From NCBI GenBank assembly GCA_017512145.1, contig JAFWHB010000001.1:1-48717 (forward strand): DNA of 48,717 nucleotides. Direction: 5' to 3'. The first letter of the stretch is position 1; each line of letters opens with the position of its first letter. Shown piece after piece: positions 4,764-42,191 of the stretch. A program made the translations under genes and the position numbers. This stretch comes from Mogibacterium sp. GTDB taxonomy: Bacteria > Bacillota > Clostridia > Peptostreptococcales > Anaerovoracaceae. Under the pieces are notes generated by a model. It ran no database searches. It was not told the DNA's origin and saw only the letters and a list, made by a program, of their open reading frames with translations.

Positions 4764-5498
4764 ATGTCAACAGACAAAGAAATCGCGATCAGGTTCGATC
4801 ACGTAACAAAGGAATACAAGCTATACAAGAATGACAAGGCCAGATTCAGAGGACTGTTCAACAAGAACGTCAAGTACAAGATCAACAGGGCGGTCAACGA
4901 TCTTTCATTTGTCATCAACAAAGGGGATTCGGTCTCGCTCATCGGCCGTAACGGCGCCGGCAAGTCAACTATCCTCAAGATAATAACCGGCGTAACATAT
5001 CCGACCAAGGGTGAAGTCGAAGTACACGGCAAGATCAGCGCGCTGCTCGAGCTGAGCGCCGGCTTTGACCAGACCTTCACCGGCAGGCAGAACATCTATC
5101 TCAAGTGCGAGCTTCTAGGCTTCACAAGAGAAGAGATCGCCGAGCTCGAGCCGGACATCATTGAATTTGCGGACCTCGGAGACTATATCGACCAGCCGCT
5201 GAGATCGTACTCAAGCGGAATGAAGGCAAGACTCGGATTTGCCATCAGCGTCAATGTAAGACCTGACATACTCATCATCGATGAGGCACTTTCCGTAGGT
5301 GACCGTAACTTCCGTAAGAAGTGCATCGCCAAGGTAGACGAGATCATGCAGAAGGAAGACGTAACACTTCTGTTCGTTACCCACTCCCTGGAGACAGCCA
5401 AGAAGTTCTGCACAAGAGGCATCGTTCTCAACAAGGGAACCAAGCTGTTCGACGGTGGCATTGATGAGGCCATAGAATTCTACGAGGCAAGAGAATAG
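4764..5498 (+). CDS. tagH: Polysaccharide/teichoic acid ABC exporter, ATPase (TagH/Wzt-like, short form)
   Basis: A 244-residue ATPase. Walker A GRNGAGKS is at 61-68, the signature SYSSGMKAR at 148-156, Walker B ILIIDE at 169-174 and the switch histidine in FVTHS at about 207. The N-terminal text 'FDHVTKEYKLYKNDKARFRGLF' is typical of the TagH/Wzt polysaccharide-export subfamily. It ends right after the nucleotide-binding domain and so lacks the long C-terminal region of Bacillus subtilis TagH and the substrate-binding domain of some Wzt proteins; chain recognition must then rest elsewhere. It pairs with the permease upstream. An AGGAG sits rather far (about 13 bases) from the ATG. The stop overlaps the next GTG start (TAGTG). 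Confidence 0.9.
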   Translation: MSTDKEIAIRFDHVTKEYKLYKNDKARFRGLFNKNVKYKINRAVNDLSFVINKGDSVSLIGRNGAGKSTILKIITGVTYPTKGEVEVHGKISALLELSAGFDQTFTGRQNIYLKCELLGFTREEIAELEPDIIEFADLGDYIDQPLRSYSSGMKARLGFAISVNVRPDILIIDEALSVGDRNFRKKCIAKVDEIMQKEDVTLLFVTHSLETAKKFCTRGIVLNKGTKLFDGGIDEAIEFYEARE

Positions 5499-6628: not shown

Positions 6629-8030
6629 AGCAGTTCTCAGAAATTTAAGGACTAAGGGTATAAGCGAGACCATCAAGATCGCTAAGAATAAGAACAAGAG
6701 ATTAGAGGCAGAGAGGATAGACAAACTCGCTAACTGCTTCCTTGCTCTGATGGATGAAGGCGTTGCTGCCATCGATAAGGCAGAGAACAAGGAAGAGAGG
6801 AAGAAGATCTCTGCTCTTCTCAAGGCTCAGGAGGATATCCTCACAGAGAAGCAGCCTAAGGCAGCCAAGGAATACCGCAAGAGACTCAAGGCAAGGACGA
6901 TCAAGGAGCAGATCCCTGCGATCTATGCCGAAGAGGCTAAGAAGCCTGTCGAGAACAAGGTCATCTTCATGGAGAACGGCGGATCGCCATCACCTACAAA
7001 CAAAAAGCTTTCCGAGGTTATCAAGGAGCAGGGCAAGTACAAGGTCGTATATAAGGGCCTGCATGTCCGCAAGGTTTCTGATGCGGAGTACTTCCACAAT
7101 TCGCTCGGATTCATCAAAGCTCTCGGAACAGCCAAGGTTCTCTTCCTCTCGACAGCTAACGACTTCCTCAGCTATCTCGACATAAGACCGGAGACCAAAG
7201 TCATCCAGCTCTGGCATGGAGTCGGCATGTTCAAGAAGGTCGGCTACAGCACTGTAGACAACTCCCACTTCGGTAAGAGCGCTAAGGACAGAGAAGAGTA
7301 TGATCAGTACCGCAACTACACATATGTAACAGTTGCAGGCGAGGAGCAGATCTGGACCTTCGAGGATGCTTTCAGGATCAGCAGGGATACCGGAACATAC
7401 AAGGCGATCGGAATCGCCCGCACGGATGTATTCTTCGATGAGGAATACTATAAGGAAGAACTTGAAAAGCTCTACGAGGCTTTCCCGCAGACAAGAGGCA
7501 AGAAGCTGGTGCTCTATGCTCCGACCTTCAGAGGCGCAGTTGCCAAGGCTAAGGCTCCTGACCAGCTCGACATCCGCAAGATGGCAGAGGCTCTGTCTGA
7601 TGAATACGTGCTGCTGATCAAGCACCACGGACTTTGCAAGGAGAAGCCACCGATCCCGGAGGATCTCGAGAATGTCTTTGCCTTTGATATGAACAAAAAC
7701 AAGGTACTGACAATCGAGGGACTTCTCGGTATCGCAGACATCCTGATAACAGACTACTCTTCAGTAGGATTTGAGTTCGCAATCAGGGAGAAGCCGATCA
7801 TCTTCTTCGCTTACGACCTCGATGACTATCTCGATCAGAGAGGTATGTACTACGATTACCAGGAGATCACACCGGGACCTATCTGCAAGACAACAGACGA
7901 GATCACGGACTTTATCACTAATATAGATGAGAGATTTGACCTTGAAGAGGTCAGAGCTTTCAGGCAGAAATACGTCGGAGCATGCGACGGACACGCTATT
8001 GAGAGAACTATAGCCCTGATGGAGGAATAA
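6618..8030 (+). CDS. CDP-glycerol glycerophosphotransferase family protein, middle-sized
   Basis: A 470-residue paralogue of the preceding gene. Residues 1-110 are charged and helical, probably a membrane- or partner-binding region. The catalytic domain follows, with QLWHGVG at 197-203, YAPTFRG at 300-306, KHH at 335-337 and TDYSSVGFEFA at 378-388. The paired histidines and the SDYSS-type motif are the family's CDP-alditol site. Start is GTG 6618 with GGAGGG 6 bases upstream; it overlaps the previous gene by 11 bases. Its role may be chain extension or a second unit type. Whether the substrate is CDP-glycerol or CDP-ribitol cannot be read from sequence. Confidence 0.82.
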   Translation: MDTKAVLRNLRTKGISETIKIAKNKNKRLEAERIDKLANCFLALMDEGVAAIDKAENKEERKKISALLKAQEDILTEKQPKAAKEYRKRLKARTIKEQIPAIYAEEAKKPVENKVIFMENGGSPSPTNKKLSEVIKEQGKYKVVYKGLHVRKVSDAEYFHNSLGFIKALGTAKVLFLSTANDFLSYLDIRPETKVIQLWHGVGMFKKVGYSTVDNSHFGKSAKDREEYDQYRNYTYVTVAGEEQIWTFEDAFRISRDTGTYKAIGIARTDVFFDEEYYKEELEKLYEAFPQTRGKKLVLYAPTFRGAVAKAKAPDQLDIRKMAEALSDEYVLLIKHHGLCKEKPPIPEDLENVFAFDMNKNKVLTIEGLLGIADILITDYSSVGFEFAIREKPIIFFAYDLDDYLDQRGMYYDYQEITPGPICKTTDEITDFITNIDERFDLEEVRAFRQKYVGACDGHAIERTIALMEE

Positions 8031-8035
8031 TATCT

Positions 8036-9748
8036 ATGAAGGGAACATTTGTAACAGACCATACGACTGATGATTATCAGGTGACTGAGCTGTGGTGGGA
8101 GAGAATATTCCTGCACTTCACTGTTGAGACAACAAGAGATGAGAATGTCACTTTCGGTCTCCGTAACTTCAACCGTAAGAGAAGAAGACCTAAGAGAGGC
8201 GAGAGATCGAGCCAGATCATCGACATGCCTATCTTCCAGGAGATCCCTATCAAGCCGGAGAAGGTCATCAAGGAGAACGGCAAGTGCCGCTACGAATTTG
8301 TCATCAATATCACTGCGGTCAAGGGAACATCCTTCCTCGACAATGGTAAGTGGCAGGTACAGGCCAATGTACCTGGCGAGGAGCCTTTCACATGCTCTGT
8401 AGCATATGATCTTGCTTATCAGCTCGATGACAAGTCCCGTATCTTCAAGTACGACGACGGTAAGTATTCGTATGATATGTCCTTCAACACCTACTCAGTT
8501 GACGGCAAGACACTGAGCCTTATGATCAGCTCCCACTTCATGATCGAGAACAAGACATGGAACAGGAGAAGATACGTCCAGGAGGCACTGACCTTCAGGG
8601 GCAAATTCGACAGAATCCACATGTATGCAGCCATCACGATGATGAGAGCATATTACGGAGTCGTAGAGAAACTGTCTCCTAAGCATGGCGACAAGATCAT
8701 GTTCATGACCGAGACAAGACCTTACCTCTGGGGCAACCTCAAATACATCGATGACAGGATCAAGGCAAGAGGCCTCGACAAGGACTTCAATATCACATAT
8801 TCACTCCGTGACGCTGTAGGAACTCACAAGAGCGCACTTAGCTGGGCGAATATGATCACCAAGATCGCAAAGCAGGACTTCATCTTCGTTGATGACTATG
8901 TTCCTGTATTCGGATTCATCAATCTCGCTGACCGCACCAAGCTGATCCAGGTATGGCACGCGGGCGAGGGCTTCAAGGCCGTAGGTTACTGCAGATTCGG
9001 CAAAGCCGGAACTCCGTATCCTGTAGGCTCCTGCCACAAGCAGTACGACTATGCGATCACAGGTTCTGAGAGACTCGTTCATGTATACAGCGAGGTATTC
9101 GGACTTCCTGAGGAGAACTTCCTCCCTGTAGGAATGGCAAGACTTGACGGCTTCCTCGATCCGGACAAGATCGCCGAGTTCAAGAAGAACTTCTATGCTG
9201 AGCATCCTGAGCTCGAGGGCAAGAAGATCATCCTCTTCGCTCCGACCTACAGAGGAACAGGACAGAAGGTCGCATTCTTCGACTATGACAAGCTCGATCT
9301 TAAGCAGATCTATGACTTCTGCGGCGATGAGTATGTCTGGGTTTACAAGATGCATCCGTTTGTCATTGATAAGCCACCTATTCCTAAGGAATATCAGGAC
9401 AGGATCATAGACCTCTCATCTTATGAGAACATCAACGATCTCTACTATATTACAGAGATTCTGATCACTGACTATTCATCGGCATACTATGAATTCGCTC
9501 TGATGGACAAGCCGGTCCTCTTCTTCACATATGACAGAGAGAGCTATGAGCTGACAAGAGGCGTCCACAAGTCAGTCAAAGACGATGCTCCGGGCAAAGT
9601 CTGCGACACCTTCGAGGAACTGATGGATGCACTTAAGAATAAGGATTACGATTTCGAGAAGACTGCAAAGTTCCGCGAGGAGAACTTCAGCAACTACGAC
9701 GGAAAGGCAGCAGACAAGATCATCGATACGATACTTCTGCACAAGTAA
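8036..9748 (+). CDS. CDP-glycerol glycerophosphotransferase family protein, large, with N-terminal beta domain
   Basis: A 570-residue third paralogue. Residues 1-180 form a beta-rich domain of the kind that precedes the catalytic domain in some TarL/TagF-like polymerases. The catalytic domain carries QVWHAGEG at 305-312, APTYRG at 402-407, KMHP at 438-441 and TDYSSAYYEFA at 478-488. GGAGG lies 8 bases before ATG 8036, only 5 bases after the previous stop. A large polymerase following a short primase-like member resembles tagB-tagF or tarK-tarL logic. Product (poly-glycerol-phosphate or poly-ribitol-phosphate) is not determined by the sequence. Confidence 0.82.
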   Translation: MKGTFVTDHTTDDYQVTELWWERIFLHFTVETTRDENVTFGLRNFNRKRRRPKRGERSSQIIDMPIFQEIPIKPEKVIKENGKCRYEFVINITAVKGTSFLDNGKWQVQANVPGEEPFTCSVAYDLAYQLDDKSRIFKYDDGKYSYDMSFNTYSVDGKTLSLMISSHFMIENKTWNRRRYVQEALTFRGKFDRIHMYAAITMMRAYYGVVEKLSPKHGDKIMFMTETRPYLWGNLKYIDDRIKARGLDKDFNITYSLRDAVGTHKSALSWANMITKIAKQDFIFVDDYVPVFGFINLADRTKLIQVWHAGEGFKAVGYCRFGKAGTPYPVGSCHKQYDYAITGSERLVHVYSEVFGLPEENFLPVGMARLDGFLDPDKIAEFKKNFYAEHPELEGKKIILFAPTYRGTGQKVAFFDYDKLDLKQIYDFCGDEYVWVYKMHPFVIDKPPIPKEYQDRIIDLSSYENINDLYYITEILITDYSSAYYEFALMDKPVLFFTYDRESYELTRGVHKSVKDDAPGKVCDTFEELMDALKNKDYDFEKTAKFREENFSNYDGKAADKIIDTILLHK

Positions 9749-26639: not shown

Positions 26640-28391
26640 ATGATCAGGAAAGAACTGGCTAAGAGAATAAGCGCGCTGATGCTGACCTTCATGTTGACAC
26701 TGTCGATGTCAGGATTTGCGTTTGAGGATGTTTTCGCTTCTACTGAAGAAGAGGCGGCTCAGGCTCAGCAGATCACTACTGAAGAATCCATAGATAATGC
26801 TGAGATTGCTGAGCAGCCTGCTGCAGCAGAGACAGCAACCGAGGCAGAGGCTGCGCCGGCCGAACAGACCGAAGTGCAGACTGAAGAGCCTGCAGCTGAT
26901 ACCGGGGCTGAGGCAGCTGAAGAGGCAGCAGAGGAACCTGCTCCTGAAGAAGCAGTTCCTGCTGAGGAAGAGATCGTGCCTCTGCAGCCTGAGGAAGAGC
27001 TTCTCGGTGAAGAGGCTATGATGGCGGTTCCTGCACCTATTACCATCACCGAATATCTTATTACAAATGCACAGGCAGACATCAGATGGAATGCTGTTCC
27101 TGATGCAGCATCATATAAGGTATTCTGCAATGGGGCACAGGTAGCAGCCGTAGTTGTACCAATCACAGATGCTTCCGGACTGATTACCGAACTCAAGGGA
27201 ACCATCCTGTATCTTCAGGCTTCTACTGAATATACTTTCAGGATCGAGGCATACGGAGCAGATGGCAGCATAATTGCAGGTTCAGACAATCTGGTCCTCA
27301 GGACCAAGAGAACACTTCCTGCGAGCATCAACAATGCTGTTAAGCTCCCAAGTGGTGCCGGAGTTCTCAATCTGAGAGAGATCATAGGCGAAGATGCAAG
27401 CGGCTACAGCGTTGTGCAGGGAAGCTGCACTGATGGCAAGGGCTATGCTTACTATATGATGGTATCCTCTGCCAACCAGATGGGCAGAGTCGCTAAGATA
27501 AGACTGGCCGACAGTACCCTTATGGGAGTATCTGAAGTATTTGATGTTTATCATGGCAATGGAATGTGCTATGATAGCAAGCGAAATCGTCTTGTCTCCT
27601 GTACATACCATGACAGCAGGCAGAGAGTATACTTCATCAACCCTGATACTCTCGCTTCGATGGGAACAGCGAATGTCCGCTTTGACAACTACAAGGGCGC
27701 AGGCGCTGACTCCATCAGTGCAAATGACAGGAAGAAGGGCCTCACAGCTATTGCTTACAACAGCACATATGACTGCTATGTATCAATGCTGAGCAGCTAT
27801 CATGATATCGTCATCTATGATGCAGAGACACTTCAGGCTATCGGCAAGGCATGCACCAAGGTAACTGCAGATTATCCTAAGGTCTGGCAGTCAATGGACG
27901 CAGATGATGAATATGTATACTTCCTCCTCAGCAAGGGCGGTAGCGAGCAGCCGAATAACATCGTGCTCTGCCTTGACTGGCACTCAGAGAAGCTCGCCCA
28001 GATGAAGGAGCAGGGGAAGACTTTCATCGAGAAGTCCTGGAACTGCGGTACCGGCGACGGAAGACCGACCACAGTTATCAAGCTCGGAGTCCCTTACGAG
28101 ATCGAGAGCATGTTCCACGTTCCAGTAGGCAACGGACTGTCCTCTTTCTATCTTTCGGAATACCACAGTGATCCATCATACAAGACCGTAACCAAGAAAG
28201 TTAAATACAAAAAGAAATGGAAGAAGGTCTGGAAGAAGGTAAAGTGGAAGAAAGTCAAGAAGAAGGGCAAGTGGAAGTGGAAATATAAAAAGAAGAAGGT
28301 CTGGAAGTACAAGACCAAGTACAAGACAGTCACGACACAGGAGAAGTACAACGCCAAGCAGAATTATGTATACAATCTCGGCATATTCTGA
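26640..28391 (+). CDS. Secreted propeller-like protein with lysine/tryptophan-rich segment (copy 1)
   Basis: A 583-residue exported protein of no recognised family. Order: signal peptide 1-33; acidic Ala/Glu low-complexity linker 34-137; Fn3-like domain about 138-225 ('SYKVFCNGAQV...YTFRIEAYGAD'); a repetitive beta, propeller-like domain about 230-515 with repeated 'YHGNGMCYDSKRN', 'IAYNSTYDCYV' and 'DDEYVYFLLSKGG' units; a 46-residue Lys/Trp/Tyr segment at 519-564; and a short beta tail ending 'NYVYNLGIF'. The K/W segment has 27 Lys, 6 Trp, 4 Tyr and no acidic residue. It seems to be inserted between two strands of the last repeat. AAAGGA precedes ATG 26640. No terminator separates it from tagO 38 bases downstream. 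The paralogue is at 32186. Confidence 0.8.
   Translation: MIRKELAKRISALMLTFMLTLSMSGFAFEDVFASTEEEAAQAQQITTEESIDNAEIAEQPAAAETATEAEAAPAEQTEVQTEEPAADTGAEAAEEAAEEPAPEEAVPAEEEIVPLQPEEELLGEEAMMAVPAPITITEYLITNAQADIRWNAVPDAASYKVFCNGAQVAAVVVPITDASGLITELKGTILYLQASTEYTFRIEAYGADGSIIAGSDNLVLRTKRTLPASINNAVKLPSGAGVLNLREIIGEDASGYSVVQGSCTDGKGYAYYMMVSSANQMGRVAKIRLADSTLMGVSEVFDVYHGNGMCYDSKRNRLVSCTYHDSRQRVYFINPDTLASMGTANVRFDNYKGAGADSISANDRKKGLTAIAYNSTYDCYVSMLSSYHDIVIYDAETLQAIGKACTKVTADYPKVWQSMDADDEYVYFLLSKGGSEQPNNIVLCLDWHSEKLAQMKEQGKTFIEKSWNCGTGDGRPTTVIKLGVPYEIESMFHVPVGNGLSSFYLSEYHSDPSYKTVTKKVKYKKKWKKVWKKVKWKKVKKKGKWKWKYKKKKVWKYKTKYKTVTTQEKYNAKQNYVYNLGIF
28194..28331 (+). repeat. K/W/Y-rich coding segment, copy 1
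   Basis: A 138-base segment encoding 46 residues (K27, W6, V6, Y4, T2, G1). It matches 33542-33679 with six base differences, all AAA/AAG swaps in lysine codons, so the encoded peptide is identical. Confidence 0.95.
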
Positions 28392-28429
28392 TCCTGCTCT
28401 GAGACTAATACAAGCAGAACAATGAAATA

Positions 28430-29587
28430 ATGGAATTAACATTCTACCTAAGAAGAGTAATAGAGGCGATCCTGATCGGAACGGTAGTATCTGCTCTGAC
28501 GACTCCTCTCAGCATCAAGCTTGCCTTCAAGTTCGATATCATCGACAGGCCAAGAGATGACAGAAGAGTTCACAACAGACCTATACCGAGATTCGGCGGG
28601 ATGGGGATCTTCGTCGGATCGATGGTCGCGATGATAATCCCTGCCACGATGAATAACAACATCAGGATCGCAATGATGGGAGGCCTACTTATGTATGCGC
28701 TGGGAGTAGCGGATGACATAGCAGACCTCCGTCCTGCTGTAAAGTTTGCGGGCCAGCTGGCCATCGCAACACTTATGTACAGCATGGGTATCCGGATCAG
28801 GTTCTTCAACGCACTTATAGCACCGGCTGCAGGATCCAAGACAGTTGTCTTCCTGGGGGCCGGTCTTGCGTACGTTGTAACGGTTCTCTGGATCGTCGGA
28901 ATTACCAATGCAGTAAATCTCATGGACGGCCTTGATGGCCTCGCGGCAGGTTCGATGGCTATCATGGCGCTTTCTCTTGCGTATGTTGCTTACATACACG
29001 GAATCAGGCTCGGCATGATGCCTGTCTGCATAGCGCTTTGCGCTATTGCCGGAGGCTGCATCGGATTCCTGCCGTACAATTTCTCGCCTGCGAAGACCTT
29101 CATGGGCGACGGAGGAGCGCTTTATCTTGGCTACATGATATCGGTGCTGTCTGTCATTTCGCCTCTTAAGAGAGCGACGATGGTCGGAGCTATCATCCCG
29201 ATGCTCGTACTTGCAGTGCCTATCTTCGATACAGCATTTGCAATGCTGAGAAGAATGGCCAGACAGGAGTCCATCATGAAGGCGGACAAGGGCCACCTCC
29301 ATCACCACCTCATGGCTGCAGGCTTTGGCCAGAGGAGATCGGTACTCATCATATACGGTATCGTAGGAATCATGGGTGTAGTCGCAGTGCTCATCAGCAG
29401 GGCTTTGTACAAGGATGCGTTCTTCCTGGCTTTGATCGCTCTGTTGTTCCTCATGATCATTATCGTACCTAAGCAGCCTAAGAAGGATATAATGAGTATC
29501 CTCACTTACGACACTGCCAAGGCACCGGAGGAACTGCACGAGGACGCGGAAGTCCCGCCTGCAGAAGATGACGAAGAACAAGAATAA
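28430..29587 (+). CDS. tagO: Undecaprenyl-phosphate N-acetylglucosamine-1-phosphate transferase (TagO/WecA family)
   Basis: A 385-residue polytopic membrane enzyme with about 11 helices. It transfers a phospho-sugar, usually GlcNAc-1-P, from UDP-sugar to undecaprenyl phosphate, the first step of wall teichoic acid and related polymers. Catalytic motifs: 'GVADDIADL' with D95-D96, 'NLMDGLDG' at 163-170, 'GDGGALYLGY' at 226-235 and 'HLHHHL' at 289-294, the last typical of the WecA/TagO group rather than MraY. The C-terminal ~25 residues are acidic. No good ribosome site precedes ATG 28430; translation may depend on the upstream gene. LCP and acyltransferase genes follow. Confidence 0.9.
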   Translation: MELTFYLRRVIEAILIGTVVSALTTPLSIKLAFKFDIIDRPRDDRRVHNRPIPRFGGMGIFVGSMVAMIIPATMNNNIRIAMMGGLLMYALGVADDIADLRPAVKFAGQLAIATLMYSMGIRIRFFNALIAPAAGSKTVVFLGAGLAYVVTVLWIVGITNAVNLMDGLDGLAAGSMAIMALSLAYVAYIHGIRLGMMPVCIALCAIAGGCIGFLPYNFSPAKTFMGDGGALYLGYMISVLSVISPLKRATMVGAIIPMLVLAVPIFDTAFAMLRRMARQESIMKADKGHLHHHLMAAGFGQRRSVLIIYGIVGIMGVVAVLISRALYKDAFFLALIALLFLMIIIVPKQPKKDIMSILTYDTAKAPEELHEDAEVPPAEDDEEQE

Positions 29588-29598
29588 CAGAGGACAGA

Positions 29599-30867
29599 AT
29601 GGCAAAGACTCGCAAGAAGAAAAAACAATCCCCGATATTCCCATCGAATAATATATACAAGATCATACTCATCATCATGGCGCTGATAGCTATTGCTTTC
29701 CTCGCCCTGATGACTGTTGTTAAAGCGCTTCCGACAAGCATCACCATGCCGCTTATAGCTGTCATGATCGCGATGCTGATAGTCGCATGCCTGCTGTTTG
29801 CAAGGAAGAGCAGAGTTCTGAGGATACTCGGACTTGTAGTGGCTATTCTCTTTGTAGCCATCTACGGAATGGGAATCCATTACCTCAGATCGACATATGC
29901 AATGTTCTCCAACATTGCAGCTGAGAGTTCGCAGATCTCATCTGAGAGCGGCAAGGACATAACACAGGAGGCGTTCAACGTCTATATCACCGGAATAGAC
30001 CAGTGGTCCAAGGAGAAGGGTCTCGACCTCGAGAGAAGTGACGTCAACATGATCGTTACGGTCTGCCCGCAGACACGCAAAGTCCTCCTCACATCAATTC
30101 CGAGAGATGCCTATGTTCCGCTTCACCGCACAGGAACCATGGACAAGCTGACACATACCGGTATCTATGGTGTGGACGAGACCATCAACACCATCCAGGA
30201 CTGGACCGGAATCGATATGGACTACTACGTCAAGGTCAACTTCAATGCATGCGTAGATATCGTCAATGCCATCGGAGGCATCGATGTTGAATCGCCAAAG
30301 GCATTCAAGTCCAAGATCTCCAAGTATAAGTACAAGAAGGGCTGGAACCATCTGAACGGCAAGCAGGCTCTCTACTATGCCCGTGAGCGTGCGGCCTTCG
30401 AAGGCGAGGATCAGCTCAGAGTAAGGAATCAGCTGCAGGTCATGGAGGCTGTACTGAACAAAGTCATGACCTCATCAACTTTGCTCACCAGCTACGGCGA
30501 TATCATGAAGACTCTCGGAGACGAGATGGAGACCAATATGCCGCAGTCGGATATCGAGTCGCTGATCCGCATGCAGCTCACAGATCTCGGCGCCTGGGAT
30601 ATCCAGTCGCAGAGAATGTCCGGAGACTACGAGATGGAAGTCGTAGCATCTATGGACGCAAGCAACAAATACACTGTACTCAAGATCACACCGAGCGTAT
30701 TCGATTCCTGCATTGATGCAATCAAGCAGACGATGAACCCGACCGAAGAAGAGATACAGCAGGCAATAGAGAACAAGAAACAGGCATCTCTGAGGAACTT
30801 CATCAACAGCCTCAGGGGCGGCAAGGCTGAAGAAGGGGAGACAGAAGAACAGGCAAATGAAGGCTAG
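29599..30867 (+). CDS. LytR-CpsA-Psr (LCP) family polymer-peptidoglycan ligase
   Basis: A 422-residue protein with a basic N-terminus, three closely spaced transmembrane helices (about 21-42, 50-68, 74-93) and an extracytoplasmic LCP domain. LCP marks: 'FNVYITGID' at 126-134, 'RSDVNMIVTV' at 146-155, 'LLTSIPRDAYV' at 163-173 and 'LNGKQALYYARER' with the conserved Arg residues that bind the polyprenyl pyrophosphate. The family transfers wall teichoic acid or capsule from lipid carrier to peptidoglycan. GAGGA precedes ATG 29599, 11 bases after tagO, fitting a first-and-last-step gene pair. The C-terminus is acidic and overlaps the acyltransferase by 11 bases. Confidence 0.92.
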   Translation: MAKTRKKKKQSPIFPSNNIYKIILIIMALIAIAFLALMTVVKALPTSITMPLIAVMIAMLIVACLLFARKSRVLRILGLVVAILFVAIYGMGIHYLRSTYAMFSNIAAESSQISSESGKDITQEAFNVYITGIDQWSKEKGLDLERSDVNMIVTVCPQTRKVLLTSIPRDAYVPLHRTGTMDKLTHTGIYGVDETINTIQDWTGIDMDYYVKVNFNACVDIVNAIGGIDVESPKAFKSKISKYKYKKGWNHLNGKQALYYARERAAFEGEDQLRVRNQLQVMEAVLNKVMTSSTLLTSYGDIMKTLGDEMETNMPQSDIESLIRMQLTDLGAWDIQSQRMSGDYEMEVVASMDASNKYTVLKITPSVFDSCIDAIKQTMNPTEEEIQQAIENKKQASLRNFINSLRGGKAEEGETEEQANEG

Positions 30868-32020
30868 GATATATAAGTACGATAATGTCAAAGCTTTCCT
30901 GATTTTCCTTGTAGTTATCGGGCATATGACTACTGACTATGTTTCGGATTCGCACATGGTCAGATGGATCACTCTGTGGATATACACATTCCATATGCCT
31001 GCATTCATCTTCATTTCCGGACTTGTCCACAAGCACTACATAACAGAAGAAAAAGCCGCGCTCGGAGTCAGGGGTGAGACCCGTCTCCGCGCCGACAAAG
31101 TATGGGGCTTCTTCCTCTGCGGATACGGACTCAAGCTGTTCCTGCAGCTGACAAGAACACTTATGGGACAGAACCCTCTCTGGCATACAATTGCCGAGCC
31201 GGGGATCCCATGGTATCTGTTCGTAATGGCAGAGTACGAGCTCCTCTTCTATTTGATGAGAAAGCTCGATGACCACATCAGGCCGGGCTACATGCTGGCA
31301 GGAGCCTTTGCACTCAGCTCGATCGTCGGATACTTCCCGGTAATAGGCGACACCTTCTGCCTGTCGAGGATGATCAACTTCCTGCCGATCTACATGATCG
31401 GATACTACATGGACATGAAGAAAGTCCTTCCTATCTTCGAGAGCCGCAGGGCAAAGCGCGCAGGCTGGGTCGTCATCGCAGCATCGCTCGTCATCTGCTG
31501 CATGGGCAAATGGAGCATGTACAGCTGGCGCAAATGGTTCACAGGCCGCAGATCTTACGAATTCCTGGGAGACTTCTTCGAGCACACTCTTCAGAACGGC
31601 TGGTGGATCAGACTCTGCGTATGGGCAGTCGCAATAATACTGACAATAGCAATCGTCTCTGTAATACCTGACAAAGACCTTGGCTACATAACAACCATCG
31701 GCGCAAGAACACTTAACATCTACTTCTGGCACAGACCGGTCTGCTACCTCTTCAGGAACTGGAAGGTACTTCCGAATCTGGTCATGCTGTTCGGCGGATC
31801 ATATAACGCAGCCGTCGCAGGCCAGGTAAGAGGCCTTGCCTTTGGCGGGAGCACATTCTCGATGCTCGCAGGCCTGATAGTCTACTGCCTGATCGGCGCC
31901 CTGATGACAGCCTTCTTCGGCATGAAGATATTCGAGCATCCGACCAAGGAGCTCATGGACCTCGGAGCGAAGATCGCAGCAAAGATCACCGCACTCAGGA
32001 GCAAAGAGCAGCAGGCATAA
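30857..32020 (+). CDS. Acyltransferase 3 family membrane protein
   Basis: A 387-residue polytopic protein with about 10 helices. Its N-terminus 'YDNVKAFLIFLVVIGHM' and 'YTFHMPAFIFISGL' match the acyltransferase-3/OafA and fucose-O-acetylase-like group; the early His in 'VIGHM' is the conserved catalytic position. The family moves acetyl or other acyl groups onto sugars of surface polymers. It overlaps the LCP gene and ends before a terminator, so O-acetylation of the polymer started by TagO is the simplest role (inference). Confidence 0.82.
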   Translation: MKARIYKYDNVKAFLIFLVVIGHMTTDYVSDSHMVRWITLWIYTFHMPAFIFISGLVHKHYITEEKAALGVRGETRLRADKVWGFFLCGYGLKLFLQLTRTLMGQNPLWHTIAEPGIPWYLFVMAEYELLFYLMRKLDDHIRPGYMLAGAFALSSIVGYFPVIGDTFCLSRMINFLPIYMIGYYMDMKKVLPIFESRRAKRAGWVVIAASLVICCMGKWSMYSWRKWFTGRRSYEFLGDFFEHTLQNGWWIRLCVWAVAIILTIAIVSVIPDKDLGYITTIGARTLNIYFWHRPVCYLFRNWKVLPNLVMLFGGSYNAAVAGQVRGLAFGGSTFSMLAGLIVYCLIGALMTAFFGMKIFEHPTKELMDLGAKIAAKITALRSKEQQA

Positions 32021-32046
32021 GGGCAATCAATAAAATCAACAGATAT

Positions 32047-32079
32047 GCGGGGAAAGCCGGCAAGGTGATCCCCGCTTTT
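32047..32079 (+). terminator. Terminator of the tagO-LCP-acyltransferase operon
   Basis: GCGGGGA (32047-32053) and TCCCCGC (32069-32075) form a stem with a 15-base loop that itself contains GCCGGC. TTTT follows. Confidence 0.7.
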
Positions 32080-32136
32080 CCGTTGCTTAAATAATGTTAA
32101 TAAAGCCTAACCGGACTGATTCGAAGTGTTAATATA

Positions 32137-32142
32137 TATACT
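32137..32142 (+). promoter_or_regulatory. Candidate -10 of the second K/W-rich protein gene
   Basis: TATACT in an AT-rich tract, 43 bases before the ATG; no good -35 box is visible. Confidence 0.3.
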
Positions 32143-32185
32143 GAACAAACATATTGAATTGTTAAGGGTTAAAGGAGAAGGATAA

Positions 32186-33838
32186 ATGCTTAAGAAAATA
32201 TCTGCCATCGCTATGTCATTAATAATGTTTGTATCGATGTCAGAGTTCGCATTGATGGAGGTCTTTGCGGAGGATGCTTCCGGACAGACGGAGACTGAGC
32301 TGGCTAAGGATGCCGGGATGACTCAGGCGCAGGCTGAGGGAAGCAGTGAGCAGGCGGATGCAAATGCGGCTGCAGATGAGACGGCAAGTGCAGAAGCCAG
32401 TGCTGCAGACAGCGATGCCGGGAACGTTGAAGCTGCTGAACAAGTTGCAGCAGAACAGGCTGCTGAAGCCACAGAGGAAGCAACTGCAGATGAAGAGGTG
32501 CCTGAAGAACTGAGCCTGGAAGCGATCCAGGAGACACTGACATATCAGACAAATGAAGCTGCTCTTGAGGGTTCTGAGGAACCTCCTGAGGAAGAGCCTG
32601 CTACTATAGAGAAGAGGTATCTGCAAAGTCAGCATATTGCCACTCCGATCCAGCAGATGACCAGCTATGGTGCAGACCTTGAGCTGAGAACTCTTATAGG
32701 AGAGCCTTCAGATGGACATGCTGTGCTGCAGGGCGCGGCAACAGACGGAGTATATGCATACTGCATGATGACATGTTCTGCAACTCAGCAGGGCAGAATT
32801 GTCAAGCTGCTGGTCGGCTCCAATGAGATTGCAGGAGTATCCGGCATACTGGATATCCATCATGGTAATGGCATGACATACGATTCCAAGAGGCATTGCC
32901 TTGTTGTAGTCGGAGCTGCAGGAAGAAGACAGCAGCTGACATACATTGATGCGAATTCTTTGATCTGCACAGGATACCGCAATGTAGCATATTCAAACTA
33001 CAAGGGAACTGATCATCCTTTCGCGCAGGGACATCAGAAGAGCGGACTCAAGAACATCGCTTACAATGCTGAATACGACTGCTACATCGCAGCTGAGAGA
33101 AATGAGTACAGCAACGTTAGCGGAGATAACTACAATCTCATGTTCTTCAACGCTGAACCGGATGAGAACGGCAACCTGCAGGCAATCGGCTTTGCGTACA
33201 GTGATATCTACGCAAAGTACAAGAAGGTATACCAGGCAATCGACGTTGATGATCAGTATGTATACTACCTGCTCAGCAAGAGCGGCAACCAGAAGAACAA
33301 CATGTTCGTTGCTACAGAGTATCATCCTGAAAAGCTTGATCCGATCAAGAATGGCGAGGTTGAATTCATAGCAGAGCCATGGAACTGCGGCGCAACTGAG
33401 AACAAGGAGATCGACGCAGTAGTCACCATCAATACAAATTACGAAGTAGAAGGACTTTACCATGTCACAGATCCTGCAACAGGTGAGAACCACTTCTACA
33501 TGACAGAGTACAACAAGGACATCAGAACCAAGACGATTTCCAAGAAAGTTAAATACAAGAAGAAATGGAAGAAGGTCTGGAAGAAGGTAAAGTGGAAGAA
33601 GGTCAAGAAGAAAGGCAAGTGGAAGTGGAAGTATAAGAAGAAGAAAGTCTGGAAGTACAAGACCAAGTACAAGACAGTCAAGGAAAAGGTCCAGTACTAC
33701 TACAGACAGGACCATATCTTCGACCTTGGCGTAATTGCAAAGGATGTCAAGGAAATCCCGGCGCCGATAGACATACCGGACGATGGCGGCGATGATGGCG
33801 AAGAGGATGAAGGAACCGAAACACCACTGAATCCATAA
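32186..33838 (+). CDS. Secreted propeller-like protein with lysine/tryptophan-rich segment (copy 2)
   Basis: A 550-residue paralogue of the protein at 26640-28391. Signal peptide about 1-28, acidic Ala/Glu linker to about 150, then the propeller-like domain with the same landmarks ('HHGNGMTYDSKRH', 'IAYNAEYDCYI', 'DDQYVYYLLSKSG', 'EPWNCGA'), the identical 46-residue K/W segment at 453-498, and a tail 'DHIFDLGVI' followed by an acidic Asp/Glu/Gly end. It lacks the Fn3-like domain of copy 1. AAAGGAGAAGG precedes ATG 32186. It has its own transcription unit between a terminator and the rpsF promoter. Function unknown; retention on anionic wall polymer is proposed. Confidence 0.8.
   Translation: MLKKISAIAMSLIMFVSMSEFALMEVFAEDASGQTETELAKDAGMTQAQAEGSSEQADANAAADETASAEASAADSDAGNVEAAEQVAAEQAAEATEEATADEEVPEELSLEAIQETLTYQTNEAALEGSEEPPEEEPATIEKRYLQSQHIATPIQQMTSYGADLELRTLIGEPSDGHAVLQGAATDGVYAYCMMTCSATQQGRIVKLLVGSNEIAGVSGILDIHHGNGMTYDSKRHCLVVVGAAGRRQQLTYIDANSLICTGYRNVAYSNYKGTDHPFAQGHQKSGLKNIAYNAEYDCYIAAERNEYSNVSGDNYNLMFFNAEPDENGNLQAIGFAYSDIYAKYKKVYQAIDVDDQYVYYLLSKSGNQKNNMFVATEYHPEKLDPIKNGEVEFIAEPWNCGATENKEIDAVVTINTNYEVEGLYHVTDPATGENHFYMTEYNKDIRTKTISKKVKYKKKWKKVWKKVKWKKVKKKGKWKWKYKKKKVWKYKTKYKTVKEKVQYYYRQDHIFDLGVIAKDVKEIPAPIDIPDDGGDDGEEDEGTETPLNP
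33542..33679 (+). repeat. K/W/Y-rich coding segment, copy 2
   Basis: Encodes the same 46 residues as 28194-28331. The six differing bases are third positions of lysine codons. Confidence 0.95.
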
Positions 33839-37384: not shown

Positions 37385-37435
37385 TAAAATTTAACCAGTT
37401 GTTCAGACTTAATCAAAGTCTGCTGAGGTGGTTAA
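37385..37435 (+). promoter_or_regulatory. Promoter and nested inverted repeats before the large BspA-like gene
   Basis: TGATAAAAT (-10 at 37385-37390, extended TG) is followed by TTAACCA (37391-37397) ... CAGACTT (37404-37410), AATCA, AAGTCTG (37416-37422) ... TGGTTAA (37429-37435). The two perfect 7-bp stems are separated by a 6x6 internal loop. It could be a leader hairpin or an operator at the transcription start. Confidence 0.45.
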
Positions 37436-37469
37436 TGATTGTTTATTGAAAGGAAAAAGTGGAAGTATT

Positions 37470-40400
37470 ATGAAGGAAGGACGTCGGATATTTGCCATTA
37501 TGCTGGCATTGGCTATCGTGTTCACCTATATGCCTGCAATTGCATTTGCAGATGATGGTGCGAACACTGCGTCAAGAGGTAAGACTTACCTGTATTTCGA
37601 TGGCGAGGGAGACGATTCTGTTACGTATGTTAATAGCGATGGCGTTGCGCAGACGGCATACCGTACAGCAGATGGATTTGCTTATACCCTTGTCAACTCT
37701 GATGGATCCAACACTGTCAGGATTATCGGATACAACGGAGGAAATAGCGTAATTAATGTTCCCGAGAAGATCCACAGCAGAACGGTTTCCGGATTCTCGA
37801 TCGATCCGGATGATCCAGTAGCAGGTGAAACCTACAATGGAATTACCGAAATCAATTTCCCGGAGAATGTGATCTATATCAGAACAAAGAATCTTACTCA
37901 TTTCCCAAACCTTAAATCTATAGGAGGTGTAGGCGGAAAAGAGTTTGAAAATGATTACTATTACACCAAGGGTGGAGTGCTGTATATCAAGAAAGCAGAT
38001 TCCGGAGTGAAGGCGATTCTTCCTACAGCATTGAAATCATGGGAAATGGAGAATGCTGTTTATAAAATTGTAAGCAGAGATTGCCAGGTCGAGGAAATCA
38101 CCTTATCTGAGGATCTTGAAGATTGTCAGAATATCACATCGTTTAGGAATGTTAAGTCGTACAAAGCTCCTGCTGCAAATGAGTACTACTCAACAGTTGA
38201 TGGGGTCCTCTATAATAAAGAAGGAACAAGTCTTGTCTGTTATCCGAGGATGAAAGAAACAACGGATTTCGTAATTCCTAACAAAGTTACCTATGTACAA
38301 GCTGGTGCTTTTCGGAATGTTGAAAATCTGCAAACACTCACATTTGCGCCTAATATTGAATATTTGAATTATTCTGTCTATAAGTGTAAAAAACTAGAAA
38401 AAGTAACACTTCCAGCAAGCCTGACACATGACGGATTAAGTTTCGACAACTGTCCAAACTTGAAAACAGTAGTATTTACAGCGAAGACAGCGCCTTCTGT
38501 TGAAGGCAGTATCAACTGGAATTTTAGTGGTTTAAGAGCTCTCTATTATAACAATAATGGTGTCGATTTTGAATATCCTGCAAATGGCGAGGGATATACA
38601 GAATTCATAGAATCTTTGACATCTATACTTGAGCCAATTCCTGATGATCCTGAACAGATCGTTGCCGGGCAGGTGTATGATGTTCAGCTGACACCAGGAG
38701 AGGTAAAAACCTTCTGCACGATTGCAGATAAAACAAGCAATTACGGAATATATGTTGCTTCAGAAGACAACAAAACTATTGATATAGCAGCGTTCAAAAA
38801 GGTTAGTGGTCAAGGAACTCCTGCTGTCAATAGAAATATCGTCACTTATCCGTATAGTGATACTTATCAAAATGCTTATTATAATATAGGGTTGGTATCA
38901 GGGGAGAGAGGATACTTCCAGTTCAAGTCTTGTAACTCAAATACCGACAAAACAACAGTATTCAAAGTCGTTCTCATCAAGACGCCTTTTAGTATTACTG
39001 AAATACCAGCTCAGTGTGAAGAGCTGACCATTGGAGAAGAAAAGACTGGAACGATTACTGATGAGAATCAAGTAGTAACATATCTTATAAGGACCCTCGA
39101 GAAAGTTCCAGGCCATTATTATAATTATACAATTACAGCCACAAGAAGTTCTAACCATGGAGAGAACACTTATTGGACCAGCTCCTTAACCTGTGATTCG
39201 GATGCTTTTAACCGAAGCGCACTATATGGATCAGCTGATACTGTAACAAGTTATCCGCTTTATTTAGATGGCGGCAAGGACTATTATCTTCAGATTCAGC
39301 CAAGTGCTGTCGGAGAATACAGCATATTGGTTTCTGTGGAGGATATTGAAACAGAAGAAGAAGGTGGATATGAATTTGCTGATGTCTCTTCGGGAGCTGT
39401 AGAGTCTATCGCGACAAACGAAGAAAAAACTGTTGCTACAACTTGGGATAAAGAGACCTTTACTTATGAGTTCATACCAACAGAAAGTGGCTATTATACC
39501 TTCGAATCATCTGGAACTGCTGATACTGTTGGCAGAGTTCTAAGCGGTGATGAAGTAATAAGCATGAATGATGACTCAGAGGATGCCGGCAAAAACAACT
39601 TTAGTGCGACCTTCTATGCGGAAGCAGGTCAGACATATTATCTGCAAGCAGTTCTGTATAATAGAAAGGAAGAAGCTACTTTCACGGTCAAACTGCACGA
39701 CTATATCGGCGAGCATCAGCATCAGCTGATCTATCATCCAGCGGTAGAGGGTACGCCGGAGAAGGACGGAACCAAGGCTTATTATGAATGTACAGTCTGC
39801 GGTCACTACTATCTATATGAGAATGCTAAGAGCAGGGTATATGAAGAGAATCTGACGGTTCCGTATGGATCACTGATCAAGGAATTATCATTCAGATCAT
39901 ATGATGGACTGACCGGTATCGCCGAAAGTGCAGATATCACCGATGAATCATTCTATGCCGATGGCAATAAGTTTGTAGCAACATTCGATGATGGATCTTC
40001 AGTTGAGTATAAATATGCTGAGCACACAGACGAAGATGGTGAAACCTACCGTGGCTACTATCTTGACGGAGACTGGACAAACAGAGATATCAGCGGTGAT
40101 TTCAAGATAACCGTTAAGACTGATGATGGACTCCTAAAAGCTGGAAAGAATGACGTAGAATTCTCAATTAAGCTTAGGGGTCAGGTCGTTAAGGCTATAG
40201 TTACTGTGACATGCGAAGGTCAGACCCATGTACATACTGCAGGTGAACCTGTTAAGGAGAATGTGGTTGAAGCTACTTGCGTACAGGATGGTAGCTATGA
40301 TGAAGTGACCTACTGTACAGAATGTGGCCAAGAACTCGAGCGCAAGACTATAATCGAAGAGAAGAAAGGTCATACATTCGATGAAGGTATTGTAACTAAG

Positions 40401-42191
40401 CCTGCAACATGTGAAACAGAAGGCGTAAAGACATTTACATGTTCTGAATGCAAAGTCACAAGAACTGAAGCGATTCCTGCATTTGGGCACGACTGGAGCG
40501 AACCTGAATACGTAGTCGCTGAAGACAATTCTTCAATAACAGCTACCAGAATTTGCAAGAACGATGCAAGCCATACAGAGGAAGAGACAGCATACTCTGT
40601 TTCCGAGACCACAGCTGCAAGCTGTGAGGAACCAGGTGAGGTTACATATTCAGTAACCTTCGAGAACCCGGCATTCAGCTATGACTCATGGACAGTTATT
40701 GTGGACAAAGTCGGACATGACTGGGATGAGCCAACATATGTATGGGCTGATGATCATAGCAGTATAACAGCTACAAGAGTGTGCAAGCGCGATTCTTCAC
40801 ATACAGAAGAAGAAACATCTAACAATATAACCATTGAGACGATAGATCCAACCTGTGAGACTGCAGGAAAGACAACTTATACTGCAACATTTACAAATCC
40901 TGGATTTGTCACGCAGACTTACACTGAAGAGATCAATGCACTTGGTCATAGCTGGAGCGAAGTCACATACACTTGGGCCGAAGACAATAGCACTGTAACT
41001 GCAGAGAGAGTTTGTGCTAATGATCCTGCTCATGTTGAAAAAGAGACTGCAGCGACCGTAAAAGATGAAACGCCGGCACAATATGACAAAGAAGGTCATA
41101 TCGACTATACTGCGGAGTTTGAAAATGAAGCATTCGTAACTCAGACCAAGACAGAGAGTATACCTACCCTTGAGAAGGAGGCAGAAGAGAAGCAGACAAC
41201 GGCTAGCAACGAAAGCGATATTGCTCAGGAAGCAGCAAGTGATGCCAATGAAGCTGTTGATAATGGTCAGGCAGATGCTGATTCGATAATTGCAAGCGCA
41301 AGTGATGCAGCAAATACAGCAGCAGACGCAGCTAAAGATGCAAGGGATGCGGCTCAGACTGCATATGATGCAGCTGAGGAAGAATATGGAGAGCAATCTG
41401 CTAATCCGGATGCTGCAAAGGTAGACGCTGCAAAGGTCGTTGTAGACGCAGCAGATAAACTCATTGTTGCTACAAGCACAACGGTAGCATCTGTTAAGAC
41501 TGCAGCAGCTAAATCCGCAAGTAAGAAGGCCGCAGCTAAACAGGCAGCCGCTGACAACGCAGCAATCGGAACAGCTGACGCAGTAGCAAAGGCTCAGGAA
41601 GCAGAGGCCGCAGCTAAAGAAGCTGTAGAACTTGCAACAGAAGCCAGCAACAAGGCGCAGGCAGCACTTGATGCCGCTGAGAAATATGGCGAAGATGATG
41701 AGGTCTACAAGAACGCCAAGGCTGCAGCAGACGCAGCTTCTAAGGAACTCAGCGATGCTAATGCTGCACTCGCAGCAGCCACTGCTTCTGTAACCAATGC
41801 GGAGGCAGCTAAGAACAATGCTGATCAGGCCGCTGCTGCAGAAGCTGCTAGACAGGCAGCCATCGCAGCTGCTCAACCTACTGAGATTCAGGATCTCCCT
41901 GCAGTCAAGATCTCCAAGCCAAAGGCTGCTAAGAAGGCTGTAACCGTCAAGTGGAAGAAGGTCAGCAAGAAGAACCAGAAGAAGATCGGTGGAATCGAGA
42001 TCCAGGTAGCAACTGACTCAGCATTCACCAATATCATCAAGTCGACAACTGCAGGAAAGAAGAAGACCAGCAAGAAGATCAAGGGCCTCACTTCAAAGCA
42101 GACTGTATGGGTCCGCGTTCGCGCATATAAGGATGCAGCAGACGGCAAACACGTATCTGCATGGAAGACTAAGAAAGTCAAGATCAAGTAG
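37470..42191 (+). CDS. Giant BspA-like surface protein with leucine-rich repeats, tandem modules, coiled-coil stalk and basic Fn3-like cap
   Basis: A 1573-residue exported protein. Signal peptide about 1-27 (MKEGRRIFAI...AIAFA). Residues ~60-370 are BspA-type LRR_5 repeats ('VTYVQAGAFRNVENLQTLTF'). Residues ~400-760 are beta-rich domains of unknown type, with Cys pairs in 'YYECTVCGHYYLY'. About 920-1005 are CxxC-containing segments ('YCTECGQELE', 'FTCSECKV'). Three ~76-residue tandem modules follow (1006-1236), then an Ala-rich coiled coil (about 1240-1470) and a lysine-rich Fn3-like domain (about 1475-1573). Stalk and cap match the protein at 1-1135. There is no LPXTG. BspA-like proteins mediate adhesion. 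ATG 37470 has only a weak site (GGAAG). The first half is AT-richer than the rest. Confidence 0.85.
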   Translation: MKEGRRIFAIMLALAIVFTYMPAIAFADDGANTASRGKTYLYFDGEGDDSVTYVNSDGVAQTAYRTADGFAYTLVNSDGSNTVRIIGYNGGNSVINVPEKIHSRTVSGFSIDPDDPVAGETYNGITEINFPENVIYIRTKNLTHFPNLKSIGGVGGKEFENDYYYTKGGVLYIKKADSGVKAILPTALKSWEMENAVYKIVSRDCQVEEITLSEDLEDCQNITSFRNVKSYKAPAANEYYSTVDGVLYNKEGTSLVCYPRMKETTDFVIPNKVTYVQAGAFRNVENLQTLTFAPNIEYLNYSVYKCKKLEKVTLPASLTHDGLSFDNCPNLKTVVFTAKTAPSVEGSINWNFSGLRALYYNNNGVDFEYPANGEGYTEFIESLTSILEPIPDDPEQIVAGQVYDVQLTPGEVKTFCTIADKTSNYGIYVASEDNKTIDIAAFKKVSGQGTPAVNRNIVTYPYSDTYQNAYYNIGLVSGERGYFQFKSCNSNTDKTTVFKVVLIKTPFSITEIPAQCEELTIGEEKTGTITDENQVVTYLIRTLEKVPGHYYNYTITATRSSNHGENTYWTSSLTCDSDAFNRSALYGSADTVTSYPLYLDGGKDYYLQIQPSAVGEYSILVSVEDIETEEEGGYEFADVSSGAVESIATNEEKTVATTWDKETFTYEFIPTESGYYTFESSGTADTVGRVLSGDEVISMNDDSEDAGKNNFSATFYAEAGQTYYLQAVLYNRKEEATFTVKLHDYIGEHQHQLIYHPAVEGTPEKDGTKAYYECTVCGHYYLYENAKSRVYEENLTVPYGSLIKELSFRSYDGLTGIAESADITDESFYADGNKFVATFDDGSSVEYKYAEHTDEDGETYRGYYLDGDWTNRDISGDFKITVKTDDGLLKAGKNDVEFSIKLRGQVVKAIVTVTCEGQTHVHTAGEPVKENVVEATCVQDGSYDEVTYCTECGQELERKTIIEEKKGHTFDEGIVTKPATCETEGVKTFTCSECKVTRTEAIPAFGHDWSEPEYVVAEDNSSITATRICKNDASHTEEETAYSVSETTAASCEEPGEVTYSVTFENPAFSYDSWTVIVDKVGHDWDEPTYVWADDHSSITATRVCKRDSSHTEEETSNNITIETIDPTCETAGKTTYTATFTNPGFVTQTYTEEINALGHSWSEVTYTWAEDNSTVTAERVCANDPAHVEKETAATVKDETPAQYDKEGHIDYTAEFENEAFVTQTKTESIPTLEKEAEEKQTTASNESDIAQEAASDANEAVDNGQADADSIIASASDAANTAADAAKDARDAAQTAYDAAEEEYGEQSANPDAAKVDAAKVVVDAADKLIVATSTTVASVKTAAAKSASKKAAAKQAAADNAAIGTADAVAKAQEAEAAAKEAVELATEASNKAQAALDAAEKYGEDDEVYKNAKAAADAASKELSDANAALAAATASVTNAEAAKNNADQAAAAEAARQAAIAAAQPTEIQDLPAVKISKPKAAKKAVTVKWKKVSKKNQKKIGGIEIQVATDSAFTNIIKSTTAGKKKTSKKIKGLTSKQTVWVRVRAYKDAADGKHVSAWKTKKVKIK
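40485..41175 (+). repeat. Three tandem ~76-residue modules in the BspA-like protein
   Basis: Units begin with GHDW/GHSW at bases 40485, 40713 and 40944 (228- and 231-base periods). Each has 'EPxYVWADD-SSITATRVCK', then 'SHTEEET', then a Cys in 'CETAGKTTYTATF'. The third unit is more diverged and lacks the second Cys. Confidence 0.8.

What the first reader, a model, noticed from the sequence alone, without database searches (positions are those of the whole stretch)
28194..33679. Identical 46-residue Lys/Trp/Tyr segment in two secreted proteins, with only synonymous changes
Bases 28194-28331 and 33542-33679 encode exactly the same 46 residues (27 Lys, 6 Trp, 4 Tyr, no acidic residue). They differ at six bases, all AAA/AAG lysine swaps, while the proteins around them have diverged strongly. 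This points to selection on the peptide or to recent local conversion. The peptide seems to be inserted between two strands of the last repeat of a propeller-like domain, in exported proteins surrounded by genes for anionic wall polymer. I infer a wall-polymer-binding module that tethers proteins without sortase.
Basis: partly seen in the sequence, partly recalled or inferred. Interest (0 to 1): 0.72.

Follow-up and report, generated by a model that had tools for sequence, protein, structure and literature searches.

The report
Telescoping lysine hairpin on wall-protein propellers
Two secreted-looking proteins of a gut bacterium share an identical lysine-rich segment; in relatives this insert changes greatly in length while its two halves keep pace with each other, and it is predicted to be a long finger of two protein strands that likely grips the negatively charged polymers of the cell wall, which would be a new way of binding the wall.

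Summary
The segment is most of a predicted beta-hairpin with ~40-residue strands and a two-residue xG turn, extending the last blade of a five-bladed beta-propeller. In 106 distinct inserts (arms 9 to 48 residues) the two arms match (r = 0.98; r = 0.94 on phylogenetic contrasts); 71 inserts of a more distant set agree, though most of them share one length. So this is a hairpin that lengthens and shortens in register, not a low-complexity tract. The exact identity here is best explained by recent exchange between the two genes: codon agreement exceeds every cross-genome pair while the propellers are near saturation; a second genome shows the same, a third does not clearly. The propellers share fold and a spaced pocket signature with staphylococcal phage proteins that recognise wall teichoic acid (sequence similarity itself is weak), sit before TagO-like and LCP genes in 22 of 28 loci, and related propellers are fused to muramidase and choline-binding repeats. 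I infer a protein that binds the cell's own teichoic acid: pocket for a sugar, hairpin along the polyanion. Binding is untested; sortase-free tethering is not shown.

The parts
28194..28331 (+). 46-residue K/W/Y segment, copy A
   Evidence: sequence
33542..33679 (+). 46-residue K/W/Y segment, copy B
   Evidence: sequence
26640..28391 (+). ORF A, 583 aa: N-terminal hydrophobic segment, acidic linker, FN3-like domain (weak evidence), five-bladed propeller with hairpin
32186..33838 (+). ORF B, 550 aa: N-terminal hydrophobic segment, acidic linker, five-bladed propeller with hairpin, acidic C-tail
28137..28262 (+). A: hairpin strand 1 (residues 500-541), predicted
   Evidence: AlphaFold2, block pLDDT 87-95; coordinates
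28269..28385 (+). A: hairpin strand 2 (residues 544-582), predicted
33488..33610 (+). B: hairpin strand 1 (residues 435-475), predicted
   Evidence: AlphaFold2, block pLDDT 93-96
33617..33733 (+). B: hairpin strand 2 (residues 478-516), predicted; Lys-Gly turn at 33611-33616
27321..28388 (+). A: five-bladed propeller domain including the hairpin
32615..33751 (+). B: five-bladed propeller domain including the hairpin
32729..33451 (+). B: span of the pocket signature residues Q182 (32729), H226 (32861), N228 (32867), Q350 (33233), E420 (33443), E422 (33449)
26730..27023 (+). A: acidic Ala/Glu-rich linker, residues 31-128 (31 D+E, 0 K+R)
   Evidence: mostly pLDDT under 50
32276..32569 (+). B: acidic linker, residues 31-128 (26 D+E, 1 K+R)
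   Evidence: mostly pLDDT under 50
28430..29587 (+). TagO/WecA-like glycosyl transferase family 4, 38 bases after ORF A
   Evidence: PF00953 6e-36; gap; the NCBIfam WecA and MraY models match below their cut-offs
29599..30867 (+). LytR-CpsA-Psr (LCP) glycopolymer transferase
   Evidence: PF03816 1.2e-39; TIGR00350 over cut-off
30857..32020 (+). acyltransferase family 3
   Evidence: PF01757
5498..9748 (+). three CDP-glycerol:poly(glycerophosphate) glycerophosphotransferase genes (5498-6628, 6618-8030, 8036-9748)
   Evidence: PF04464
2299..3930 (+). LicD-family gene
   Evidence: PF04991 6.5e-30

Best explanation
The segment is most of a predicted long beta-hairpin that extends the last blade of a probably secreted five-bladed propeller, and it likely lies along the cell's own anionic wall polymer as a cationic, aromatic comb. 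Shown by sequence: the insert's two arms keep pace in length across relatives, lysine makes up about half of it and acidic residues almost none, and the two copies of this genome share codons far beyond their propellers. Predicted: the hairpin (AlphaFold2 models of both proteins) and the five-bladed propeller. Inferred: the propeller's conserved pocket (Q, H-x-N, Q, E-x-E) holds a sugar of the teichoic acid, as proposed for the staphylococcal phage receptor-binding propellers with the same fold and signature, while the hairpin runs about 10 nm along the phosphate backbone, its lysine-richer face to the charge and its aromatic face to sugars or wall; side chains on one face of a strand repeat about every 7 angstrom, close to my estimate for an extended glycerol-phosphate unit (both distances recalled, no call). 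Tip growth and exchange between paralogues would tune hairpin length per genome to that genome's polymer. The likely job, given the usual place before TagO-like and LCP genes, is holding or organising polymer as it is attached to peptidoglycan, or non-covalent retention of the protein in the wall.
For: Hairpin: AF2 strands 435-475/478-516 in B and 500-541/544-582 in A; arm lengths r = 0.979 over 106 of 130 distinct inserts (24 with another tip, no turn glycine, or lost to the filter set aside); contrasts r = 0.944 with 40 concordant, 4 discordant, 3 one-armed of 47 nonzero, maximum 0.20 in 200 permutations; distant set r = 0.984 over 71 inserts, difference 3 or 4 in 68 of 71, most of one length. 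Composition: 52.6% K, 10.9% W, 8.4% Y, 0.5% D+E of 4516 residues in 103 inserts cut at K-bearing words; one face richer in K/R (0.71 against 0.45) in 87 hairpins. Context: Glyphos_transf x3, LicD, GT4, LCP; GT4 then LCP after the propeller gene in 22 of 28 loci. Pocket: H226, N228, Q350, E420, E422 in 109 of 109 aligned family proteins and Q182 in 106 of 109; strict signature in 114 of 125 family proteins and, among 736 ORFs, outside the family only in the four phage proteins. Fold. Phage pocket residues Gln165, Thr211, Gln330 modelled around GlcNAc of teichoic acid (PMC4901313, passages). Fusions of related propellers with GH25 and choline-binding repeats.
Confidence: 0.48

Rival explanations
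1. The hairpin is an assembly arm: its free edges or its lysines pair with other copies or with the acidic N-terminal linkers, so the proteins build a layer or fibre outside the cell; binding of wall polymer is secondary.
For: Both proteins carry an acidic linker (31 and 26 acidic residues in residues 31-128); linker charge and length correlate weakly with hairpin charge (Spearman -0.28 and 0.35 over 105 proteins, 34 skipped). Two long exposed edge strands favour sheet growth (inference).
Against: Proteins with a full hairpin and almost no acidic linker exist (P0009; P0096). The correlations are weak and not corrected for relatedness.
Confidence: 0.17
2. The hairpin is a cationic, tryptophan-rich surface that acts on membranes or walls of other cells (antimicrobial or adhesin-like), resembling a giant beta-hairpin antimicrobial peptide.
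For: K/W/Y-rich beta-hairpin composition; related propellers are fused to GH25 muramidases.
Against: Encoded before the cell's own wall-polymer genes in 22 of 28 loci; lysine is frequent on both faces, so the hairpin is not strictly amphipathic. Immunity genes were not looked for.
Confidence: 0.13
3. The propeller is an enzyme related to glutaminyl cyclases and the hairpin only positions it on the wall.
Against: No PF05096 hit in A or B or in the own genome at E 1e-10; none of 6 cyclases read carries the family signature (2 of 8 loci not read correctly), and the words GEGI, EGWG and NELE seen in the cyclases are not in A or B.
Confidence: 0.09
4. The identity of the two segments is only strong selection on the peptide with biased codons, or slippage of AAG repeats, without exchange between the genes.
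For: Lysine codons are 81% AAG here, so 21 of 27 lysine matches are near expectation; the L043 pair is not an outlier (21 of 133 cross pairs at least as high).
Against: 13 of 13 non-lysine, non-tryptophan codons match; window pair 37 of 44 and L053 pair 36 of 46 exceed all 133 cross-genome pairs (maximum 0.69); relatives vary in length and sequence; arm locking speaks against plain slippage.
Confidence: 0.1

Closest known systems
PF21311 Phage_RBD_prop: five-bladed propeller of staphylococcal phage receptor-binding proteins (phi11 Gp45, 80alpha, P68)
   Different: No Pfam match; sequence similarity weak; part of a virion there, a chromosomal gene product here; phi11's sequence has no lysine hairpin
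Bacillus subtilis TagC (major teichoic acid biosynthesis protein C)
   Same: Recalled: a propeller-type protein encoded in a teichoic acid operon. The PF21311 control search rings in B. subtilis and Methanosarcina acetivorans, one of the two over the cut-off, the answer does not say which; some phage relatives are annotated with TagC's name
   Different: TagC was not read here; that the B. subtilis match is TagC is recalled, not tested; no hairpin known to me
Glutaminyl cyclases (PF05096)
   Same: Top fold matches
   Different: Signature and cyclase words differ; no PF05096 hit
Choline-binding proteins and other non-covalent wall anchors (SLH, GW, LysM; recalled)
   Same: Non-covalent wall attachment as a principle; related propellers are fused to choline-binding repeats
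   Different: No choline-binding repeat in A or B; the hairpin is one long element inside a propeller, not a repeat domain
Beta-hairpin antimicrobial peptides (protegrin, tachyplesin; recalled)
   Same: Cationic aromatic beta-hairpin
   Different: Much longer here, inside a large protein, no cysteines in the segment

Membership tests
PF21311 phage receptor-binding propeller | Pfam model above gathering score | tested here: not met
   No hit for A, B and four relatives; 0 of 47 genus genomes over cut-off, 5 of 47 with matches below it
PF21311 phage receptor-binding propeller | five-bladed propeller fold | tested here: met
PF21311 phage receptor-binding propeller | pocket residues Gln165, Thr211, Gln330 | tested here: inconclusive
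   Q182, N228 (N for T), Q350 correspond by order and spacing, with H and E-x-E beside them; no superposition was possible and hhalign aligned only Q350 and E-x-E, weakly
PF21311 phage receptor-binding propeller | binds wall teichoic acid | not testable with these tools
   needs a binding assay
Glutaminyl cyclase PF05096 | Pfam model and conserved cyclase words | tested here: not met
Sortase substrates | C-terminal LPxTG-like motif | tested here: not met
   no LPxT in A or B; ends YNLGIF and TETPLNP; other sortase signals not tested
Choline-binding proteins | choline-binding repeats | tested here: not met
   no Choline_bind hit in A or B at E up to 1
Beta-hairpin with a two-residue turn | equal arms around a turn residue; antiparallel strand pair | tested here: met
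   arm lengths; AF2, (prediction)

The most novel reading that the evidence does not exclude
A new kind of wall-binding element: a register-locked, telescoping lysine-tryptophan beta-hairpin that works as a molecular comb or ruler along teichoic acid, whose length is set by growth at the tip and kept uniform among a genome's propellers by gene conversion, so that each strain's hairpin is matched to its own polymer.
Probability: 0.28. Interest if true: 0.82.

Novelty: new variant of a known kind. Interest (0 to 1): 0.63.

Why it matters
How wall teichoic acid is handled between export and ligation, and how wall proteins without covalent anchors are held, are open questions. A defined, length-variable polycationic element usually encoded beside TagO-like and LCP genes would be a direct handle: natural relatives with inserts from 10 to about 90 residues form a ready series for measuring binding against length. 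The arm-length test also shows how to tell a real structural element from a low-complexity tract using sequence alone.

Tried and rejected
Low-complexity or slippage tract: rejected by arm locking. Exact peptide under selection: relatives differ. Known family: no significant match to propeller or hairpin in Pfam, NCBIfam or PDB sequences; PHROGs hits of A (best E 0.0004) lie before the propeller. Module spread through the order: the exact DNA pattern for KKVWKYK is in 3 of 297 genomes, two of this genus (9 genus genomes were in the sample) and one not within any ORF of 90 codons or more; relatives with other words do occur in other lineages. In one search, 291 of 320 pattern stretches were not relatives by tblastn and were not looked at, so a hairpin on other proteins is not excluded. 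Concerted evolution as a rule: three genomes with two readable long-hairpin copies, two clear, one not; a fourth pair, put together only by equal contig length (P0004 and P0056), has different tips and speaks against a strict rule. Acidic-linker counter-charge: weak. PF04464 association: not informative. Viral structure library: 24 matches at E 0.001 or better, none named as a phi11-type protein among the 50 shown; a missing row there proves nothing. tblastn of P0009 in phage records: no match. Bacterial PF21311 members in the phylum: search did not complete. Literature: nothing on this family in the listings (titles and abstract starts only; not proof of absence); only PMC4901313 was opened, by passages.

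Rows dropped before counts: 6 of 170 proteins without anchors and 24 of 130 distinct inserts (other tips, no turn glycine, and at least one, L028, lost to my filter although it has a turn), 34 proteins skipped, single-turn hairpins only (87); one search held one duplicate locus (L019 with L057), removed, its 104 proteins were chosen by carrying the QG word, so its count for Q182 is by construction and I use instead; its 39 others are 30 from other genera and 9 divergent ones of the same genus; one search read 6 of 8 cyclase loci, 7 of 119 without the E-x-E word, 45 of 119 proteins without anchors or without a single G, the other 74 giving 71 distinct inserts. One search looked at a wrong position for the third DNA match; one search put that right.

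Full report
OBSERVATION. The two 138-base stretches exist as described and encode the same 46 residues (27 K, 6 V, 6 W, 4 Y, 2 T, 1 G), differing at six third positions, all lysine AAA/AAG. They lie in ORF A (26640-28391, 583 aa) and ORF B (32186-33838, 550 aa). The genome, 2.36 Mb in 33 contigs, holds no third copy by protein search; the weak third DNA match is a short VKWKKVNKK in the C-terminal part of a leucine-rich-repeat protein. The close relative of A in the protein search (98% identical) is named Mogibacterium sp.. Identity drops at both edges of the tract.

EXCHANGE OR SELECTION. In the aligned propeller of A and B, 57 of 110 identical-residue degenerate codons are the same, against 49.6 expected from codon usage, that is close to saturation; in the segment all 13 V, Y, T and G codons agree (product of chance matches 1.1e-6), and 21 of 27 lysine codons. 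As a control that keeps hairpin-specific codon habits, 17 hairpins from the window and the loci gave 133 cross-genome pairs with mean codon agreement 0.507 (sd 0.091, maximum 0.692). The window pair has 37 of 44 (0.84), the tandem pair of L053 36 of 46 (0.78), both above every cross pair; the tandem pair of L043 has 25 of 41 (0.61), equalled or passed by 21 of 133. So exchange between paralogues is well supported here, supported in a second genome and unresolved in a third; a fourth pair, placed together only by equal contig length, has different tips.

THE FAMILY. Searches with A and B gave 27 and 175 proteins (120 listed for B); all 125 sequences printed (A, B and 123 relatives) carry a K-rich insert at this site. 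In 47 genus genomes, 30 have a match to B; some of these have only 10-18 residues there. With a profile, 120 of 349 genomes of the family match, a good part of the listed matches only weakly or in the N-terminal part. A search with the propeller of P0029, a relative with Big_2 and FN3 domains, gave 252 proteins (120 listed); of 112 with a readable site, 82 have a K/R-rich insert. No Pfam, NCBIfam or PDB sequence family matches propeller or hairpin significantly.

IT IS A HAIRPIN. AlphaFold2 models of B and of A, from overlapping alignments of the family, both show two strands of about 40 residues with a two-residue Lys-Gly turn (B 435-475 and 478-516, block pLDDT 93-96; A 500-541 and 544-582, 87-95). 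Independent of any model, I measured the distance from the conserved word before the insert to the turn glycine, and from there to the conserved word after it. In 106 distinct inserts arm 1 runs from 9 to 48 and arm 2 from 9 to 42 residues, r = 0.979. On a tree of 93 propellers the contrasts give r = 0.944; of 47 nonzero contrasts 40 change both arms the same way, 4 oppositely, 3 in one arm; 200 permutations reach at most 0.20. In 71 distinct inserts of the distant set r = 0.984, with the arm difference 3 or 4 in 68; most of these share one length, so this set adds less than its number suggests. A further class replaces the simple turn by a tip such as RKWYNKKTKKWTTKKP on the same base, and the distant set includes inserts with two turn motifs, probably four strands. 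Growth at the tip would explain why both arms lengthen together; that is inference.

CHEMISTRY OF THE HAIRPIN. In 103 distinct inserts, cut at K-bearing words (4516 residues), lysine is 52.6%, V 13.8, W 10.9, Y 8.4, arginine 2.6, D+E 0.5. Counting cross-strand pairs from the turn in 87 hairpins, one face averages 0.71 K/R and 0.06 aromatic, the other 0.45 K/R and 0.34 aromatic: a lysine face and an aromatic-lysine face.

CONTEXT. The window carries three CDP-glycerol glycerophosphotransferases and a LicD gene, a flippase, YfhO, and after A a TagO/WecA-like GT4, an LCP transferase and an acyltransferase. In 28 loci, nearly all MAGs called Mogibacterium or Clostridiales, propeller then GT4 then LCP is found in 22; two further contigs end inside the propeller gene and four lack it. 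Ten of the 22 have inserts of 35 residues or fewer, so the place belongs to the propeller and the long hairpin is an added part. In 40 stretches with more distant propellers none shows GT4 or LCP; one hairpin propeller (L102, another genus) lies beside a CDP-glycerol polymerase. Related propellers are fused to GH25, choline-binding repeats, FN3 and a transglutaminase domain.

MECHANISM. I commit to a secreted protein that binds the cell's own teichoic acid: pocket on a sugar, hairpin along the polyanion. Shown: segment identity, arm locking, composition, codon evidence, neighbourhood. Predicted: structures. Inferred: export, ligand, orientation, tuning of length, and role near LCP. Sortase-free tethering stays possible but is not shown; the genome has four sortase-family matches.

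VERDICT. Real, more general than the finding said, and not a repeat artefact; a new hairpin-bearing variant of five-bladed propellers. The polymer-comb reading is attractive and testable but unproven.

Noticed in passing
window 26730-27023 and 32276-32569: Both proteins have a strongly acidic Ala/Glu-rich linker before the propeller (31 and 26 acidic residues, 0 and 1 basic), the electrical opposite of the hairpin; weakly correlated with hairpin charge in relatives.
   Followed up: partly
L053 (RUG13623 contig), ORF of 974 codons: The second propeller gene runs in frame into the GT4 gene, with the last propeller strand and the GT4 start apparently missing: a fusion or an assembly join.
   Followed up: no
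P0205, P0208, P0211: GH25 muramidase, choline-binding repeats, FN3 and a C-terminal propeller whose insert has two xGKWKY-type turns, probably a four-stranded version of the hairpin.
   Followed up: partly
P0027, P0066, P0068, P0083 and about ten others: A different tip (RKWYNKKTKKWTTKKPKKKYRG) sits on the same hairpin base, as if tips were exchanged as units.
   Followed up: no
L110, L112, L119, L135, L139: Other genera have differently worded lysine-rich inserts at the same site of the last blade.
   Followed up: partly
window 37428-42191: 1587-aa protein with BspA-type leucine-rich repeats and a weak PA14 match downstream.
   Followed up: no
window 2299-3930: LicD-family gene near the polymerases, suggesting phosphocholine or a similar decoration of the polymer (role recalled).
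   Followed up: no
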